NCBI GenBank assembly: GCA_001692895.1
Contig: KV748280.1
Location: forward strand, 186,001 to 250,000
Source of the DNA: Cenococcum geophilum 1.58
Taxonomy: Eukaryota > Ascomycota > Dothideomycetes > Gloniales > Gloniaceae
Length of the DNA stretch: 64,000 nt
Direction of reading: 5' to 3'
How positions within the stretch are numbered: the first letter of the stretch is position 1; each line of letters opens with the position of its first letter. Below, piece after piece: positions 48,195 to 62,345 of the stretch. A program made the translations under genes and the position numbers. The notes under the pieces are model-generated. The model saw nothing but the letters and a program-made list of their open reading frames with translations. It was not told the DNA's origin and ran no database searches.

Positions 48195-48500
48195 TACTAC
48201 TAAGGCTCTATATAAGGCTCTATATAAAGCCCTATATAAAGCTCTGCATAAAGCCCTATATAAAGCTCTATATAAAGCTTTATACAAAACTCTATACAAA
48301 ACTCTATATAAAGCTCTATATAAAGTTCTATATAAAGCTTTATATATAAAGGCTCTGCACAAAGCTCTATATAAAGCTCTATATAAAGCTCTGCGTAAAA
48401 CTCTATACGAAGCTTTATATAAAGCTCTATGTATATATAAAAGCTCTGCATAAGGCTCTGCGCAAAGCTCTGCGTATAGAGGCTCTATATAAAGCTCCAT
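48195..48500. repeat. 12/15-bp tandem array (AAAGCTCTATAT type), right arm of X
   Basis: Units of 12 and 15 bp built on AAAGCTCTRYRY. Because units are multiples of three and lack stops in several frames, two long overlapping frames (Lys-Ala-Leu-Tyr type and Glu-Leu-Tyr-Ile type) stay open on the minus strand. These are not convincing genes. Confidence 0.9.
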
Positions 48501-52818: not shown

Positions 52819-54320
52819 TTACCCCCCCTCTAAAAAAGCCTGCCCTTGGGCTTTATAGTCCATATTATACCTATAGGGCGTTCTTATCTTTATACTCTTC
52901 TAGCAACTTACTATCTTTATTATACTAGTATTCCATCTATTTGTCTAGGTATTTTAGCGGTTTAGGTTTATTAGGGTAACAGCTATAGAACTTCTAAAGC
53001 TTATGGGGATTACCTATAAAGTTCTATATAGGGTACTAAGTGGGGTCCGGGTTATATCCTTTTTAATTAATATAATACTTTAGCGTTTCCCTTGCAAGTT
53101 TATAGGCCAGTATTTCTTTAATTTTCTATTTATTATTGCTATTAACTTAAATCGACAGGGGCGGTTTATTCTTTTATTTAGGTAATAGGTTATTTATAGT
53201 TTTCTATAGCTTATCCGGCGAGAAAATAAAATAGACCTTAATTAAATCTAGGAGCTTTACTTTATATAAGTTACCTATCTTCTTAAGGACTTTATATAGT
53301 CCTACTATCTAATAGTCTAGCTTACGGCTAGGCCGTTCTATCTTTTAGTTCTTTATTATAACCTAGACTATATCGCCTATAGTAAAGTTAGGCTCGCGCC
53401 TATGCTCATTCGCCTACTATTTATTAATTTTTAGGCTTTTTCTATATTTATATAGGCTACCGTCTAGGCTTCTTCTAAGTTCTTAACGTACTGCTAGGCT
53501 TCCCTACAGAATAGTTTTTTGCATACAGTCTGTGGTTCTTTTAGTCTTTCCTAGTTAAAGCTTATATAGGGTAAGTAGCCTATATCTAGCTAAATAGGGG
53601 CAAATCTAGTAGAGTTATAGGGTAGGGTTGCTTGGACATAGTCTATTAGGGGTAATAGCTTAGCCTAGTTATCTTAGAAGTAGTTAATAAAAGGCTGGAG
53701 TCTCTGGTCTAAATATTAATTTATAGTCTCTATCTAGCCGTCTATTTAGGGGTAGTATACTATAGAAAGCTTTAGCCTAATATCTAAAATCTAGGTAAAC
53801 TTGTTCTAAAAGATTAATATAAACCACGGCCCGTAGTTAGACACAATAGTATTTAATAGTCCGTAAATTTGGTAGACGTAGTGGATATATAGTCAAGCCG
53901 CCTTTTTAGTATTAATATTCTTATAATAGGGGATTAAGAACGGGCGCTTACTAAAGTAGTTAACTAAAATTATAACTATATTGTATCTATTACGGTCTAT
54001 AGGTAGCTTATAGAAATTTATAAAGATATACTACTAGGGGCGTTCTAGTATTAGAAGTGTTTTTAATAGTCCTAGGGTTTTATTTTAGGGAATTATAGAT
54101 CTACGGTAGCTGTCGCAGTTCCGTACGTAACAGTTAATATCTATAACTATTCTAGGCCAGTAGTAACGGTTACTAATAATCTTGCAAGTCTTATTCTTTT
54201 TAGGGTAGGCTATAGAGACTTAGGTATATACTTTAGCGATAATCTAAGTCCGTAAGTTCTGTTTCTCTACTACTACTATATCGTTTTAGGCCACCGTTAA
54301 GGGGGCTATTAAGTATAGCG
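52603..54320 (-). mobile_element. Gypsy E: 3' fragment (LTR plus integrase)
   Basis: A 3' LTR (52,603-52,818) is followed by the minus-strand polypurine tract (TTACCCCCCC on the + strand) and a pol C-terminus: an integrase core at about 53,300-54,300 and a tail at 52,860-53,300. The tract and adjoining bases (TCTAAAAAAGCCTGCCCTT) are nearly the same as at the corresponding place in Gypsy C (25,783-25,815), so E and C are related. RT, gag and the 5' LTR are missing, and homology stops near 54,320. Broken and truncated. Confidence 0.8.
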
Positions 54321-54335
54321 ACGATTGAATAAGGC

Positions 54336-54366
54336 CTACGTACGTAGCTGCGTACGTAGCTACGTA
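54336..54366. repeat. 12-bp repeat with palindromic TACGTACGTA core
   Basis: About 2.5 copies of CGTACGTAGCTG/A at the junction between the Gypsy E fragment and the Tc1-like remnant. Confidence 0.7.
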
Positions 54367-54379
54367 TAAGAGCGGTAGA

Positions 54380-55670
54380 AGGGGTACTCCAAGTTTATGT
54401 TTTGGGGTTGCTTTATATACGACTTTAAAGGCCCTTACTATATTTAGAAGCCCCAAATAACAAAGAAATTTAATAAATTAAAATCTATTATTAAGATCTG
54501 GAATTAAGCTCTAGAGCTAAGGGTATATAAGGCCTAGAAAAAGAATTAAGCTGCTAAAAGGACCCTATATAAACTATGTTATAAGAGGCAAATAGGCGGC
54601 GCTCTTGCTAAATGGAAGTTTACGGCGTTATATAGAGCTTTAACTCATTTAAATAGAGGTAGAATTAACTAGTGGCGATATTTAACGAATATTTTAATAC
54701 CAAAACTTCTTCCGTTTGCCTAGAGTTTTATATAACAGTTACTTAAATCCTAATACAATTATATAGGAAGATAAGGCTACTTCTTATATTGCAAAGATTC
54801 ACTAAACCTACTTTAACGCTTGCGAGATCTAACGTCTTTTTTGGCTAGGTAATTTGCCTAATCTAAATATAATTAAGCCCTGTTGGGGCTACCTAAAACG
54901 GATTACTATAAAAAGAGGCCTACTTACCTCCCGCGCAGCTACGGAGAAGGCTTAGCTTAGAGCTTAGCAAGATCTTAAGTAGTGGCGAATTTAGTAGTGG
55001 ATTGAGAGGATCCCTTCCTATATTAAGAAGGTTATAGAACTTAAAGGAGGCAACAATTATAGAGAGGGAGCAGATAAAAAGCAGCGAAGCTGGAAGTAGC
55101 TCCGTGAGGAAGCCAATTGTAAGCTCTCTATAATTGTTAAGGTGCTTAAAACGGGCTACAAGATATTGCGCAATTACTATAGTCTACCTAACGCCTATTT
55201 ATAATTCTTCCTACCTACGCAGAGCTGTGAGGAAATTAAAGAGATTACTAAGGAAGAGTGGCAAAAAGTAGCTAATTTGGTGGTTCCAAATCGACGTTAA
55301 AATACTTAAGGCTCTGGCTTAATTGTAGATCGACAGCTCTATAACCAGAGACTCTAAAGAAACGATCGCAATTAGGTAATTAAACGGGTAGAGAGCCAGG
55401 TAGAGAGCTAGGTAGAGAGCCAAGAACAATAGAGGCAATTAAGGCCTCGAAAACCTCGAAAGCCTGTAGAATATAAGGTGCGGTGGAACGAGGTTAATTA
55501 GGTAAATGCTAGACACTAAAACACCACGTTTTGGAAGCTATATAGACAATATACTGGTATCAAAAGCTTAAATCAAGCTGATCGAGTTGATTTTGGTGAG
55601 GTCTTGGCGCTTAAAACCACGCTTTTCCTAAATAGGAAGGAGAAATCTCTTTCTGGGCCGTCCTCCGTAC
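54380..55670 (+). pseudogene. Tc1-like DNA transposon transposase, 5'-truncated and RIPped
   Basis: A DDE transposase of the fungal Tc1 type. The catalytic block EDKATSYIAKIH (from 54,772) carries one Asp. It is followed by LGNLPNLNIIKPCWGYLK, family form GNSPDLNxIEPCWxYLK. Here the second Asp reads Asn and Glu reads Lys, both G-to-A changes expected from RIP. Next is WIERIPSYIKKVIELKGGN (near 55,000-55,050). Upstream sequence (54,390-54,770) reads FMFWGCF and LIPKLLPFAQ in a different frame, so at least one frameshift lies near 54,740. The N-terminal DNA-binding domain is missing. Downstream, about 190 codons continue open apart from TAA/TAG stops (EEWQKVANLVVPNRR near 55,270, TTFWKLYRQYTGIKSLNQAD near 55,530). 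The MULE-like element is inserted at its 3' end. Confidence 0.75.
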
Positions 55671-55712
55671 GAGTCTAAAGGTCGGAGAGTGTAGCCGAAA
55701 GCTCCGGGAGTG
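55671..55712 (+). repeat. Left TIR of the MULE-like element
   Basis: It starts GAGTCTAAAGGTCGG directly after CCTCCGTAC. The longest shared block with the right TIR is GCCGAAAGCTCCG. Mismatches are mostly transversions, so they are not RIP. Confidence 0.75.
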
Positions 55713-57079
55713 TTCAAATACGCCACGTCGCAAAATCTTACACTTAATGAACTTTAGCCCCGTGCGCGCACACCTAATGAGCTTTTAATACAAAATTCTT
55801 TAAAATTATCGCGATTAATATATTAAAGCTATATATTATTATATAATATTACAACCATACCCTATCTTTAGCGTATTTAAGATCGTGCAAATCTTAGCAT
55901 TAAAAATGGCCAATAATACGCAAGCATCCTAAAGTGCGCAAAGATGTATCTAGGATAGATTAATAATATATCCAGGATATAATCCAGATACCCTTACGCA
56001 CCTGCCTATCTTAAGTAGTTCTTCTATACTACTGCCAATAGAAGAAACTTAGCCTTTAATTAAAGACTTAGAACAATTACGGAAGGACTTCTTCTATAAA
56101 GGGCAACGGGTGCAGAAGGAACGCATATGTGTAAACATTAAAGATAGTAATTAGGATATATCCGGCTTATATTGGGAGTACCACCAAGATATTTAATCCC
56201 AAATACCCATACTATAACGATCTGCTAATGCCTCTTCTTTAACGATAGTAGTAAGTAGAATTATATAACGCGAGCTATATATAATATATAAACTAATTAT
56301 CTCTATAATATAGCCAGGCTTAATATTAATTACATAAACTAGATCGCTTGTAGTAGAAAGACTTATATTTAGTTAAGAGATACCGGAATATCCTATATCC
56401 TCTAAGCACGGGATTAGATATATTATAGATTTGTCTGGCCTATAGCTAAATAATAAGAATATTATAAAGATATACAAAAATGTAAGACACTATATCCTAG
56501 ATAGATCTTATATATAACTTGGTTCTAATATAGATAGATGCAATACTCATATATATTAAAGAATAAAATAAGTATAATATACCCTCTTCTTGGCCTCCAA
56601 AAGTGTTTTAAAAGACAGATACCCTATTTAGGCGTGTTTTGTTACGAATATTTAGACCCTTAACTATAAAACTTTCATCACAAGTAAATTACAGTGGAGG
56701 ACTGGGAAAGAATACGTAAATTGTGAGAAAAAGTATAATATATCTATAATATTATGCTACTATATCTAAGTTATAATATAGACGTCGCGAACTCTTATAT
56801 ATTTCCTTGGCGATTTAATAGAATTAAATTAAGATAACATTAAACGAAGAGACATAAACACGTAAGACATTTATTTATATTATCTATTTTTATTAACATA
56901 TATATAGGCTTTATAATAGTATTTGTTATGCATTTTAGCACTAGATTGCCTGTATAGAGTAGAGTGCTAGTTGCAAGCCATATCTTTATATTGTAAAGTA
57001 CACGGTTAGTGTCTAATAGATTCTAAATATATTACTACTATAACTAAGCTATAACTAGTCACTTATAGATAGACCTGTG
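55713..57079. other. Left interior of the MULE-like element, no gene placed
   Basis: AT-rich. On the minus strand at about 55,951-56,002 there is an intron-like stretch (GTGCGTAAGG, then GATTATATCC, then TAATCTATCCTAG) sharing the ATTATATCC core of the introns at the other end of the element. Short readable pieces occur, but I could not fix a frame. The transposase gene probably begins within this stretch. Confidence 0.5.
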
Positions 57080-57115
57080 GTAAGTATATACTATACTAAG
57101 GGAAGTCAAATATAG

Positions 57116-59000
57116 AACCATGAAAAACACTACCAAAAGTCTCTTTCTTTAGTTTCAAAATACTTATTAAAATATTTAAGAGATTTACTTAACTAAGGCT
57201 ATTAGGGTACCCTAGAAACCTATGCAGCGGTAGAGCATAGGAAGAAAAGATCAGATGATTGCGGTAAGTTATTATAATATGTATATAACTATGATATAAC
57301 TATAATATAATACTAATATATCTAGGTTGTAACCACGCCCAAGGGCCTAGAAAATGGGTACTAGCCCTATATAACGTGGAGTTTAATTATATATAGCCAG
57401 ATAATATTAAGGATTGCCCTTATATTATTTTAACTTCTTACGGCAAATATATGCATCCTCTAGCGCCTCCGTCGAAGGTTCTAATACAGCTTATTAAAGA
57501 ACTTTAATAATAAATCCAGCGACAGTTGGGGCTAGGGCTTACTCTAAGTATATTATATCCAAGCTATATTAATACTCTATCCTTACTCTATTAGGCTCTT
57601 TTACATATAGCCCTTTAATAAAAAAGTTTTGCGAAAAATATGATGTTACTAGCCTTCTAAGCCTTTATTAAAGCCTAGCAAATCTTAATAAGATTCGATA
57701 CATAATTAAAAAGTAACAGCTTTTATTATTTCTACAAGGTTAAGATATACAAGGGGTAATATTTAAAAAGCATCTATATTATAAAACTGGTCCTAAATAT
57801 ATATAAGATATATTCCACGAAAATAGTAAGCTAATAATTACATACTTTCAAAAAGGCTAGGCAGAAATACTATTAACGTTAAAAACGTTTAAAATTAATA
57901 TGTCGTTTAAACGAGTTGGTACAGCTAGGCTAGATAAGGTTGTAATTGCTGTAAATATCCCTAGAATTAATAAAGGTATTATATAACCTAGTTATATCAC
58001 GGTTATATCTTTATTCTAATAAGGCTATAGTTATTACACTAATAAGAGTTTTTATAAACCAAGCCATGGGCCGATTAGCAGAGATATATTAACAACTTTT
58101 CCATACTATATTCCGCTTATATAAGAATTACGGCTATCTAACTTATTGGAGTTATATCCATAAACGTGGATTTTATATAGCTCTTATGGATATAGATAGG
58201 GCGCAGGCAAAAGGTATTTTATAATGCGTATGTGTTAAAGATATTACTGAAATATATTAGGGCTTGGCCTTTACCTAGTAGATATTAACCCCTCGCAGAC
58301 CTAGCAGGGCTATATAAAGTCTGCAATTATATATTACCAAATCCACATTCTTCGCAGTATTTATTAGGTTATTAGAGCCGGAAATATAGGCTAAGATAGT
58401 GTTAGGCAACACATGGCTTCGATTATAGAGGCTATAAGCCGTAAGCAATACTACAAAATTTTGGACGCGATTAAAGGTATAAAGATATTATATCCCTAAT
58501 TAATCTATACTATATCTATATTCTAACATTTACGGTTATAGAAAAGTACAGCAATAACCATAAAATTGTAAACTAGTGTTAACATAAGCGATATATATAT
58601 ATTGCATCTGGAATAAATCTATATTATAGTAAAATGGACAGTAATATATTCTCTATAATTATAAAGAATACAAACGCTATTAAATGCTCCTATTTTTAAG
58701 CGAATAATCTTGGGCGTCGATTAAGCCTTTTAGCTACTATTTTAATGTTAGTATATCTTATATATCCGTAATATAGTATTATAATAACAATTATAGTGGA
58801 CAAAGAATTGATGTTTTTAATTTTAAAGCGTGGAAGGCGTATTATTAGCATGGGATTTTATATATATCGCGAACTATATCTATTACCGAAAGAATAGCTC
58901 TAGTAAAGAAGCGTAAATATATAGATTTATTATGGCTCTAATATAGATATATCGCTAATATAATCTGCTATAATTCTATGAGTTTTAAAAGAGCTAGAAA
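57116..59000 (+). pseudogene. Probable DDE (Mutator-like) transposase gene, multi-exon, RIPped
   Basis: The frame runs 57,116-57,263, an intron 57,264-57,325 (GTAAGT to CTAG), then 383 codons to 58,476 in which every stop is TAA or TAG, the RIP pattern for Gln. It reads HRKKRSDDCG then CNHAQGPRKWVLALYNVEF, then ILTSYGKYMHPLAPPSKV. Further on it has VITLIRVFINQ, YIHKRGFYIALMDIDRAQAKG (probable second catalytic Asp) and, after one or more introns between 58,477 and 58,610, NTNAIKCSYFQANNLGRRL. From memory of related fungal proteins the last motif is NTNAxExxHF, with Glu as the third catalytic residue; here it reads Lys, a G-to-A change. The first catalytic Asp and the N-terminus are not placed, and the 3' end is approximate. 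Family assignment rests on motifs plus TIR/TSD structure. Confidence 0.6.
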
Positions 59001-59808
59001 AATTAAGAAAACAGGCCTGTACTGGCAAAGGAAAAGCTAATGCTATATCTATAAGTATTAAAGAGGATAAAGATTTTGATTTTAATAATATTATATTAGA
59101 TATATTATCTTCCAGAACTAATATACGCCCATAGTTGTAATTATGAAGTTCGCGAGGCGCACGATTAAAATCTCGCTCATAATCTCTTGCCTCTGTTTGC
59201 TCCGGTATATTATATTCTAGATCTTACCAAATTCTATAAAGCTAATATTTTTTAGTATCCTCTATTATAATATTAAATGATAGACAGGTTTCGCTCTCTT
59301 TTAGGCCTATTTCACCGTTAGGTAGGATTATCTAGATATATCCTTAATATATCTAGCTTATAAGCTAACTGTATCTAAGATATAAGAGTAGCTTATAGTC
59401 CTTACTTTGTACAACTGTTACTTAATAAGCTTAATTCTCACAACAGTTAATGCTATAGCAATCCTAATTAAATATTCATAAGCAAGAAGCCCGGGTTTTA
59501 CGTATGGAAGCTAAAGCAAAAGTAATTAAACTATAAAATCGGAAGATGGAATTGGAGCTTAGAAAATTAGAATGAGAACTTGGTTAATATAAATTTTTAT
59601 ATTTATAAGCATAAAGGGCAGAGGTTATATTAAGGTAATTACCTAGATAGAGTAACATTATAATGTCTAAGAGAAAGCCTAACCTAAATTCTCTGCGCTA
59701 TGCCTATGCTCCGCGCAATGTTCTATGGCCTATGTATAATGCTTTATAGTGTCCACGATATAACTAGGATATAACTAGTATATATCTAAGATGTATAAAC
59801 GCCTTAAC

Positions 59809-61900
59809 CTATTTAACCCACACGGTGTAGTCCTCCTTAGCATTAAACGACTCCCCATTATTAAAGTCATCTATAACCTTTGGCAGCATTGTATTAGGTA
59901 AAATAAAGTTCTATTTATAATTAGATTATAGATATATTAGTAATATAATTAAAAACTATAAGCATACCTTGTTAAACCAGATATACGTACCCCAGTTAAA
60001 TAAGCATACTATTTGCGTTAGATCTAAGATATAACAGAAATATAACTAGCAAACTTACTCTTACTACTAGTTCTACATAAAAAATATTTCTGATTCTTAG
60101 GCTTGCCAATAACCTTAAACATCGCGACGCGATTAGGCTATATTAAAGTTAGATTATAGTTATATAGTAATTATAACTGCCTAAACTTACCTTGCCCTTA
60201 GAGGTTAATGGAATTCTAGAATGGAATATAATACGTATCTGCTTAACTAGCTCCTCTATATAATCCGGTTAGATCTATAATATAATAAGATTATAAATAA
60301 TAACATACCTAGATCTGCTGAAGTTGCTTTGCGTTTTCTATAACCTTTGGCCGTTAAGGGTGCATTTTTAGTTAGGGGGGCTAAAATATATTAGCAATAT
60401 ATCCTAGATAGAAGAACATTAGTTCAAACCATTATAATATATTCTAGCCTTTCTTACTACTTTACTAATAGGGCATATGACCTGTAGTTCCTCCTTCGTA
60501 TAAATAGCTCTATAAAGTGTCTTTTAAGCCGCTAAAATAAGTTAGATCTAGGATATAATATAGATATATGGATAAACATACTATCTAAATTATCCAATTC
60601 CAGTTCTTTTTAACCTCTAGGCTTTATACTCCTAATTATATAGCCTCCACCTTTCTTTATTTTAAGGTTAGAAGGAGCTTATAATGTGGACACATCTAGG
60701 ATTTTACTGGAAAATGCGACTTAATATGCTTAATTAATCCTCCATAACTATTTACGAATTTTTTTTCCTAAGCGCAAACAGTGTGCTCGGCATTTAGATC
60801 CTATTATAGTTAGATTTAGGATATAATAAAGATATATAGCACTTATAACTTACAGTCTTCCTAATAGCACAATCCTATCTATAGAAAATCTCCTCTGGTA
60901 GAATATGGATGAGGAAATGTTTGCTGTGGGGCTATATTTAGGTTACATCTTGGATATAAGCTAGATATATACTAGATATTACCTTAATATAAAAGAATAG
61001 AATCTACCCTGGGCGCTTATTAAGTCTAAGATACTATACCTTAGTATATTAAGCGGGGGCACCAGAAATGCGCCTCTTTATAGTATTTGGCTGAAGAGTA
61101 GCATTATAAGTGCTAGAACCCTCGCCCTCACTACCATCCGAGTCTAGATTAGAATATGGCCTAGAAGCTACTACCCTATTCGCCGGAGTGCTATATATAG
61201 CTATTATAGTGGCGTTTGGATCTTGTATAGAGTCGCTAGGGCTACTAAGGACTTCGTTAATAATCTATTAAGGTTAGATTATAGATATAACGTGGTTTTA
61301 TCTAAAATATAACTTATATCTTTTACGACCTCCATCCCAGTAAAAGTATTCACCTTCCTATTTTACAGAAAATTCTCGGTCTATATCCTAATTAGATCCT
61401 TCTTATAACCACCAGAAGTTACTTTACCTTATTATGAAATTGCGTATTTAGACTATCGAGTGGTGTCTATTTTATGTTAGATTATGGATATAACCTAAAT
61501 ATATACCTACGCTACTTATATAGGAGTTATCGCAGTTGTTCTCTAGAGGCTAAAAGGGATTTGGTGGCAACTAATATGGTTAGGTTAGATTATAATAATA
61601 ATAGGGATAGAATATTAATAAATACCTCTCCTACTCCAGATTGCTGGTTCTCTAGGCTCTATAGCTACATTAGATCCTTAATAAAACCTTAATATAACCT
61701 TAACATAACCTCCCAAAACTTACCTCATCTATATTATTACTAAGCTCTTTTAAAATCGTGTTGGATAATAGGAAGTATTTAATTAAAGCTTGCAAACAGC
61801 TATAACGACGTTATAATCGAAATATAATCGCGTTATCGACTCTAAACGTGATGCGATGAGAATTCAATTGTGTACTAAGTGAAGCTGTGTCGGAGTCAAA
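59809..61900 (-). pseudogene. Intron-rich gene of unknown function carried by the MULE-like element
   Basis: Exons on + coordinates in transcript order are: about 61,900-61,724; 61,664-61,626; 61,570-61,507; 61,466-61,327; 61,264-60,983; 60,931-60,854; 60,800-60,582; 60,531-60,309; 60,255-60,191; 60,137-60,059; 60,008-59,968; 59,910-59,809. Exon lengths keep one phase throughout (39; 64+140; 282; 78; 219; 223+65; 79+41; 102), and interruptions are almost only TAA/TAG. One TGA lies in the 60,309-60,531 exon. This coordinated phase is strong evidence for a real gene, about 480 residues. Readable pieces include SNLDSDGSEGEGSSTYNATL (acidic, low complexity), LIKHIKSH (a possible degenerate C2H2 His pair), RIIFHSRIPLTSKGK, FKVIGKPKNQKYFLCR, WGTYIWFNK and VIDDFNNGESFNAKEDY. 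No start ATG is visible and I do not recognise the family. The TAG at 59,809-59,811 is taken as the end but could be a RIP stop. Confidence 0.65.
59911..61723 (-). other. Eleven short introns with a shared core (introner-like)
   Basis: Introns (+ coordinates) are 61,665-61,723, 61,571-61,625, 61,467-61,506, 61,265-61,326, 60,932-60,982, 60,801-60,853, 60,532-60,581, 60,256-60,308, 60,138-60,190, 60,009-60,058 and 59,911-59,967; lengths are 40-62 nt. All start GTAAGT/GTATGT-like and end TAG. Ten carry ATCTAAC/ATCTAAT about 8-15 nt before the 3' end; the one at 60,932-60,982 has ATGTAAC. Several share TTATATCC or TTATATCT, 2-4 bases, then ATCTAAC: for example TTATATCCTAGATCTAAC (60,532-60,581), TTATATCCTAAATCTAAC (60,801-60,853) and TTATATCTTAGATCTAAC (60,009-60,058). 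This exceeds ordinary branch-site consensus. Confidence 0.65.
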
Positions 61901-61937
61901 ATATCAACACTAGCCGAGGTTTTAGTGCCTTGGCGGG

Positions 61938-61979
61938 CACTAACGGAGCTTTCGGCAACACTGGCCGAGCTGTATGCTC
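61938..61979 (-). repeat. Right TIR of the MULE-like element
   Basis: Reads GAGCATACAGCTCGG inward on the minus strand, directly bordered by the second CCTCCGTAC (61,980-61,988). Alignment with the left TIR needs no gaps over 42 bp. Confidence 0.75.
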
Positions 61980-62280
61980 CCTCCGTACAGTGATGTCAAA
62001 ATTATAAATTCGCTACGCGCATCCAATCTCGCTTGGTTGCCACCAACTGTACATAGTAATTGTAGCGAAGCCGTATACTTGGCTGCAAGAACCTTCGCGA
62101 TCCCGCAGTGTCGTAATCTTCATTAAATATCGTAAGGTTTCCACCCGTATTATTAATATTGCTAAATTTCATCGACCTCTCTGCAAAGAGAGCGTTGTAT
62201 TTGCATTTTTGGCGGTCATAAGAGAGGTGTAGTTACGGGGGAGAAGGGGGAGAAGAGGAAGCGTATATCTTCAATTTAGT

Positions 62281-62345
62281 TCTCCTGGCCAACCAAAGCG
62301 AATCTCCAGGGCAACCAAGGCGATTCTCCAGGGCAACCAAAAAGG
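62281..62345. repeat. 22-bp direct repeat, nearly three copies
   Basis: Units start TCTCCAGGGCAACCAA (first unit TCTCCTGGCCAACCAA) at 62,281, 62,303 and 62,325. Function unknown. Confidence 0.85.

What the first reader, a model, noticed from the sequence alone, without database searches (positions are those of the whole stretch)
59911..61723. Introner-like introns inside a transposon-borne gene
Eleven 40-62 nt introns preserve phase across twelve exons, and many share TTATATCC/T plus a short gap plus ATCTAAC. Shared intron bodies are the mark of introner-like elements (described in Dothideomycetes, established knowledge). Finding them concentrated in a mobile element suggests a route by which introns multiply or spread. 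AT bias from RIP could exaggerate the likeness.
Basis: partly seen in the sequence, partly recalled or inferred. Interest (0 to 1): 0.8.

Follow-up and report, generated by a model that had tools for sequence, protein, structure and literature searches.

The report
Transposon introns built from 11-base repeats
The introns of a fungal jumping gene look alike because each is a worn row of about 11-base repeats that includes the splicing branch site, and they mostly grow or shrink by whole repeats; introns of a sample of ordinary genes in the same genome do not show this.

Summary
The likeness between introns is real. I count 13 candidate introns (40-62 nt) in 59911-61723, minus strand; they match each other far beyond dinucleotide shuffles (z 13.1; 6.3 upstream of the branch site), while 14 host kinase introns do not (z 0.4). 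They do not look like introners. They are degenerate tandem arrays of an 11-nt unit that includes the branch site: lag-11 identity 0.53 against 0.34 in shuffles (0 of 2000 reach it; host flat; exons flat). Three introns of the convergent putative transposase gene in the same element show it too (z 5.3), as do 8 introns of an open transposase relative, 36% identical (C110, z 7.3): other unit, and 3 of 4 comparable intron positions shared, one not. RIP therefore does not explain it. Between copies, 6 of 7 counted intron length changes are multiples of 11, 0 of 6 elsewhere. The element is a 6.3-kb transposon with 42-nt inverted ends and a 9-bp target duplication. Shown: period, unit steps, sharing across families. 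Inferred: slippage-like unit turnover. Not shown: splicing, function, other species.

The parts
55671..61979 (.). DNA transposon (6.3 kb) that holds both genes
   Evidence: most copy alignments end at or near 61979 and at 55671; ends read
55662..55670 (.). target-site duplication CCTCCGTAC, left copy
61980..61988 (.). target-site duplication CCTCCGTAC, right copy
55671..55712 (+). terminal inverted repeat, left arm
   Evidence: pair I15, 42 nt, 79% complementary
61938..61979 (-). terminal inverted repeat, right arm
   Evidence: pair I15
59812..61790 (-). broken multi-intron gene of unknown function (extent approximate); weak DUF3716 match, E 0.0095, below Pfam's cut-off
61665..61723 (-). candidate intron 1 (59 nt; acceptor uncertain); lacks 22 nt in L014 and 11 nt in L027; 33 nt longer in L032
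61571..61625 (-). candidate intron 2 (55 nt); lacks 11 nt in L026
61467..61510 (-). candidate intron 3 (44 nt)
61388..61427 (-). candidate intron 4 (40 nt); boundaries uncertain; 29 nt shorter in the divergent subfamily
61265..61326 (-). candidate intron 5 (62 nt); donor uncertain
60932..60982 (-). candidate intron 6 (51 nt)
60801..60853 (-). candidate intron 7 (53 nt)
60532..60581 (-). candidate intron 8 (50 nt)
60381..60429 (-). candidate intron 9 (49 nt); boundaries uncertain
60256..60308 (-). candidate intron 10 (53 nt)
60138..60190 (-). candidate intron 11 (53 nt); 11 nt longer in L014
60009..60058 (-). candidate intron 12 (50 nt)
59911..59967 (-). candidate intron 13 (57 nt)
57100..59586 (+). 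convergent gene for a putative DDE transposase (broken here; extent approximate, start not mapped)
57264..57325 (+). transposase intron (62 nt here; 73 or 95 nt in other copies, 23 nt in L014)
57548..57594 (+). transposase intron (47 nt), same place as C110 intron 2
57976..58030 (+). transposase intron (55 nt), same place as C110 intron 4

Best explanation
The introns are degenerate minisatellites. Each is a tandem array of about 11-nt units, one of which as a rule holds the branch site (about ATATCCTAGAT/CTAACTTAGAT in this element, CTAACRTGTTT in the related family). Arrays gain and lose whole units, probably by replication slippage or unequal exchange, while donor, branch site and acceptor are held by the need to splice. 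Repeated birth of units keeps introns of one transposon lineage alike and lets two lineages differ in unit while most introns compared stay in place. Shown: the period, its absence from exons and from 14 host introns, unit-sized length changes, presence in both genes and in two transposase families, independence of RIP. Inferred: slippage as the engine, and birth and death of units as the reason for the likeness. Not shown: splicing.
For: Lag 11 in the 13 introns: 0.534 against 0.338 in shuffles, 0 of 2000 reach it; lag 22 z 6.0; lags 9, 10, 12, 13 at z 0.9, -3.3, -1.9, 1.4; exons z -1.6 (with intron 6 about 10 nt misplaced). Upstream of the branch site alone, 12 of the 13 introns (one too short): z 5.5. 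Three introns of the convergent gene: 0.625 against 0.346, z 5.3. C110, open: 8 introns 0.469 against 0.282, z 7.3; exons z 1.3. RIPed family-2 member on C3, 7 introns placed by exon homology: z 6.8. Host kinase introns (14): z -0.2. Length changes of 4 nt or more: minus-gene introns -11, -22, -11, +11 (4 of 4 multiples of 11) against -16, -41, -6, +24 elsewhere (0 of 4; Fisher 0.029); transposase intron 1 is 62, 73 or 95 nt, with one -39 exception. One 11-nt profile shared by all introns of a gene fits best: z 18.6 minus gene, 27.1 C110, host 0.8; only 6 shuffles per period, and other periods reach z 7.2 and 8.0 at 13 nt.
Against: Intron 4 of the divergent subfamily is 29 nt shorter, and L014 lost 39 nt from transposase intron 1; neither is a multiple of 11. 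Single introns are often weak: in C110, 3 of 8 have z under 2 at lag 11. Arrays of periods 9, 10 and 12 are as common as 11 outside the element, and spaced TAAC patterns give 34, 58 and 78 places for periods 10, 11 and 12 (controls 8, 11, 22), so the period is not special genome-wide. The segment 59747-59801 has lag 11 but is not a mapped intron. No RNA evidence.
Confidence: 0.66

Rival explanations
1. Selection for repeated branch-site-like signals: extra phased branch sites are kept because they make splicing robust, for example against mutation of repeats.
For: The fitted units are in phase with the branch site in most introns of both families (12 of 13 minus-gene introns by eye); the pattern is there in an open copy.
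Against: Upstream units are mostly not CTAAC (ATATC, GAACA and others); length steps of 11 need a mutational process anyway.
Confidence: 0.17
2. The arrays are only the element's share of a genome-wide habit: short 9-12 nt tandem repeats are common in this genome's repeat DNA, and introns are where they are tolerated.
For: Arrays of periods 9-12 are frequent outside the element and in spaced-pattern counts; other repeats carry 11-nt arrays outside recognised introns.
Against: In copies of the element (not independent) period 11 has 162 of 390 arrays, periods 9, 10 and 12 have 43, 11 and 3; in the window copy only lag 11 gives segments among lags 8-14.
Confidence: 0.2
3. Introner-like elements: intron bodies copied by transposition into new sites of the transposon's genes.
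For: Introns of one element share sequence beyond composition; C110 intron 3 has no counterpart in the window's element.
Against: Likeness is in 11-nt units, not in whole bodies; 3 of 4 comparable positions are shared at 36% protein identity; the core word was found in this element family, two hits unexamined.
Confidence: 0.07
4. RIP or AT bias makes unrelated introns look alike.
For: Copies differ largely by C-to-T and G-to-A changes and hold many stops.
Against: Dinucleotide shuffles do not reproduce it; the open C110 gene shows it; point mutation does not change length.
Confidence: 0.02

Closest known systems
Intron gain by DNA repeat expansion in Cryptococcus (PMC2395259; abstract and passages seen)
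   Same: tandem repeat expansion changes introns in a fungal gene; slippage is among the causes proposed
   Different: there a repeat of about 107 nt holding a whole intron is multiplied and intron number changes; here 11-nt units lie inside each intron
Introners (PMC9860276; passages seen)
   Same: introns share sequence; a mobile element is involved
   Different: likeness lies in short units, most comparable positions are shared between families, no spread beyond this element family was seen
Minisatellites in fungal introns (recalled in general, no call)
   Same: tandem units that change number
   Different: here each intron set tested in two transposase families and in a partner gene shows one period, mostly in phase with the branch site
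Mutator-like DNA transposons
   Same: inverted ends and 9-bp target duplication
   Different: Pfam's MULE model does not detect the transposase
Stwintrons of Hypoxylaceae and Xylariaceae (PMC8469720, PMC12403724; listing only)
   Same: sequence-similar fungal introns that multiply
   Different: those are nested introns; nesting was not searched for here

Membership tests
Introner / introner-like element | near-identical intron bodies at many sites | tested here: not met
   introns of one gene align far better than shuffles but share 11-nt units, not whole bodies
Introner / introner-like element | spread over many unrelated genes | tested here: not met
   core word only: 46 of 48 places are in or near this element family, 2 unexamined
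Introner / introner-like element | recent gain at new positions | tested here: inconclusive
   partner gene: 3 of 4 comparable positions shared with C110, C110 intron 3 not; no homologue to test the minus-strand gene
Introner / introner-like element | own inverted ends or target duplications | not tested
   no systematic search at single introns
Mutator-like transposon | terminal inverted repeats and 8-11 bp target duplication (lengths recalled) | tested here: met
   42-nt arms, 79% complementary; 9-bp duplication in the window copy and the C55 copy
Mutator-like transposon | MULE transposase domain (PF10551) | tested here: not met
   no Pfam match for the two transposase proteins sent; 82 PF10551 places, none in the window's element or at C110
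Mutator-like transposon | catalytic DDE residues | tested here: inconclusive
   VDMSFKR, SDMDG and NAVEQ read by eye in C110; no structure made
Minisatellite | tandem units of one period that vary in number between copies | tested here: met
   neighbouring units are only about 50% identical
Spliceosomal intron | removed from RNA | not testable with these tools
   no RNA data; frame and exon homology support the transposase introns only

The most novel reading that the evidence does not exclude
A transposon lineage rebuilds its introns in place: introns, most of them at conserved positions, are continually regenerated from one 11-nt branch-site module, so that all introns of a lineage converge on that lineage's own module. 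This would be concerted intron evolution with the branch site as the seed of the repeat; an intron present in one family only (C110 intron 3) may even have been born from it.
Probability: 0.3. Interest if true: 0.82.

Novelty: new variant of a known kind. Interest (0 to 1): 0.62.

Why it matters
How intron bodies arise and change is an open question. Here are introns whose sequence can be read as a repeat unit, in many copies per genome, with length changes mostly in steps of one unit and mostly conserved positions between lineages. That makes intron growth, shrinkage and turnover countable, and offers a case where likeness between introns imitates introners without evident transposition of introns.

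Tried and rejected
Introner reading: not favoured, see rivals. RIP artefact: rejected with the open C110 gene. C110 is called open because a 9-exon chain without stops spans it; the model forbids stops, one search lists no stops in two exons, none in two and one TGA in a third match that runs past an exon end. A link to the 11-12 bp periodicity that RIP uses to sense homology in Neurospora (PMC4858203, passages): noted, not tested; the same paper reports little or no effect of periods 11-15 in another setting. Pfam and PDB gave no transposase family. DUF3716 led to another repeat family with its own 11-nt arrays. Three PF10551 loci as a control gave almost no introns. My notes give a 10-bp target duplication; one search corrects it to 9 bp. 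C110 intron 2 was called as 41 nt and used as 59 nt after comparison with family 2. Intron 6 of the minus gene was misplaced, corrected; intron 5 was shifted only. Searches used RIP-aware letters for the three transposase introns, another the window's own. Rows left out: the indel count covers 19 copies and not L031-L035, whose differences (29 nt, about 126 nt, and +33 nt in L032) are told apart; some places counted as outside introns may be unmapped transposase introns.

Full report
The gene and its carrier. The stretch 59911-61723 lies on the minus strand inside a repeated element (58 matches in the own assembly of 177.2 Mb and 162 contigs, a lower bound; by size I recall Cenococcum geophilum, which no call tested). 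Most copy alignments end at or near 61979 and at 55671. The ends are inverted repeats of 42 nt (79% complementary), flanked by the 9-bp duplication CCTCCGTAC; the copy on C55 has TAGAGGTCA on both sides. A second gene on the plus strand, convergent with the first, encodes a putative transposase. Pfam's MULE model does not see it, so I call it Mutator-like by its ends only.

The observation. I list 13 candidate introns of 40-62 nt. They resemble each other beyond dinucleotide composition: mean pairwise score 13.71 against 9.81 (z 13.1), and 9.95 against 8.45 (z 6.3) when branch site and acceptor are removed. Fourteen introns from host kinase genes (16 stretches picked for signs of an intron, 14 introns called) give z 0.4 and -0.9.

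What the likeness is. The introns have an 11-nt period: identity at lag 11 is 0.534 against 0.338, 0 of 2000 shuffles reach it, lag 22 gives z 6.0, and lags 9, 10, 12 and 13 give z 0.9, -3.3, -1.9 and 1.4. Exons give z -1.6, host introns z -0.2. Upstream of the branch site alone, lag 11 gives z 5.5 (12 of 13 introns). In the element, stretches of at least 69% identity over 26 nt occur six times at lag 11 and never at lags 8-10 and 12-14; five of the six overlap mapped introns of the two genes, one (59747-59801) does not. A single 11-nt profile fits all introns of the gene best (z 18.6; next 7.2 at 13 nt; 6 shuffles per period), with the branch site in the same phase in 12 of 13 by reading of the fitted register.

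The convergent gene and its relatives. Three introns of the plus-strand gene have the same period (z 5.3). A relative exists in RIPed copies (28-34% identical in most tblastn matches) and as an open copy on C110 (36% over 256 aligned residues). C110 has 8 introns by a splice model that knows nothing of periods but forbids stops; lag 11 is 0.469 against 0.282 (z 7.3, 0 of 2000), its exons z 1.3. Exon homology places 7 of these introns in three family-2 members; the 7 introns of one member give z 6.8. The unit there is about CTAACRTGTTT, unlike the unit of the window's element. Positions: C110 introns 1, 2 and 4 have counterparts at the same place in the window's transposase gene, C110 intron 3 has none; introns 5-8 could not be compared. 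So the period is neither RIP nor composition, three of four introns compared are older than the split of the two families, and one was gained or lost since.

How it changes. Among 19 copies, the four intron length changes of 4 nt or more in the minus-gene region are -11, -22, -11 and +11, and the four elsewhere are -16, -41, -6 and +24. Intron 1 of the transposase is 62, 73 or 95 nt long, with one copy that lost 39 nt. Together 6 of 7 intron changes are multiples of 11 and 0 of 6 others (Fisher 0.0047; some of the others may lie in unmapped transposase introns). Copy L032 of the divergent subfamily has 33 nt more in intron 1. Against this, intron 4 is 29 nt shorter in the divergent subfamily.

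Is it the genome's habit? Outside the element in 166,107 fetched bases, arrays of periods 9, 10, 11 and 12 number 78, 60, 55 and 52 (of 634); inside copies of the element, which are not independent, they number 43, 11, 162 and 3 (of 390). With stricter cut-offs (score 40 or more, at least 2.4 copies) the outside counts are 20, 25, 40 and 34. Genome-wide, three-step TAAC..TAAC..TAGG patterns give 34, 58 and 78 places for periods 10, 11 and 12 with controls 8, 11 and 22. So short arrays are common here and 11 is not clearly special for the genome; it dominates in this transposon. Whether introns of other transposons have their own periods was not settled: three poorly placed introns from three PF10551 loci give z 1.2.

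Mechanism. I think the introns are minisatellites under splicing constraint: units are duplicated or lost, donor, branch site and acceptor persist, and new units are copied from their neighbours. Slippage is inferred. A part for selection on extra branch-site-like units is not excluded.

Prior work. Five searches showed no listed title or start of abstract that describes introns made of 11-nt units; only the listed rows were seen, in an open-access library. Closest is repeat expansion of whole introns in Cryptococcus (PMC2395259, abstract and passages). The introner survey PMC9860276 has no mention of Cenococcum in its main text (term search).

Noticed in passing
locus L059 + L084 (C110:139300-141700): An open copy of the transposase relative, about 640 codons in 9 exons by my model, among many RIPed relatives.
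   Followed up: partly
C110 intron 3 (in L059/L084) against window 57600-57976: An intron present in C110 and three family-2 members checked but absent from the window's transposase gene: a gain or loss to date.
   Followed up: partly
loci L052-L054: Repeats with DUF3716 (55 matches at E 1 or better in the genome) carry 11-nt arrays such as CTACTACTGCC.
   Followed up: partly
loci L031-L035: The divergent subfamily has about 126 nt more inside exon 3 of the minus-strand gene, possibly a small insertion.
   Followed up: no
window 54279-55669: Neighbouring repeat with ends of about 80 nt that recur in reverse, abutting the element's target duplication.
   Followed up: no
window 48201-48433: Long run of 12-nt repeats (TATATAAAGCTC type), seen as overlapping inverted pairs.
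   Followed up: no
window 62280-62341: 22-nt tandem repeat TTCTCCAGGGCAACCAAAGCGA, 2.8 copies, just outside the element.
   Followed up: no
copies of the element, e.g. window 61100-61300: Differences between copies cluster at CG, which reads CG, TG, CA or TA, so the mutation looks CpG-directed (by eye).
   Followed up: no
locus L020, plus-strand transposase intron 1: Nearly perfect run of the 11-mer ATAACTATAAT, which looks like a fresh expansion.
   Followed up: partly
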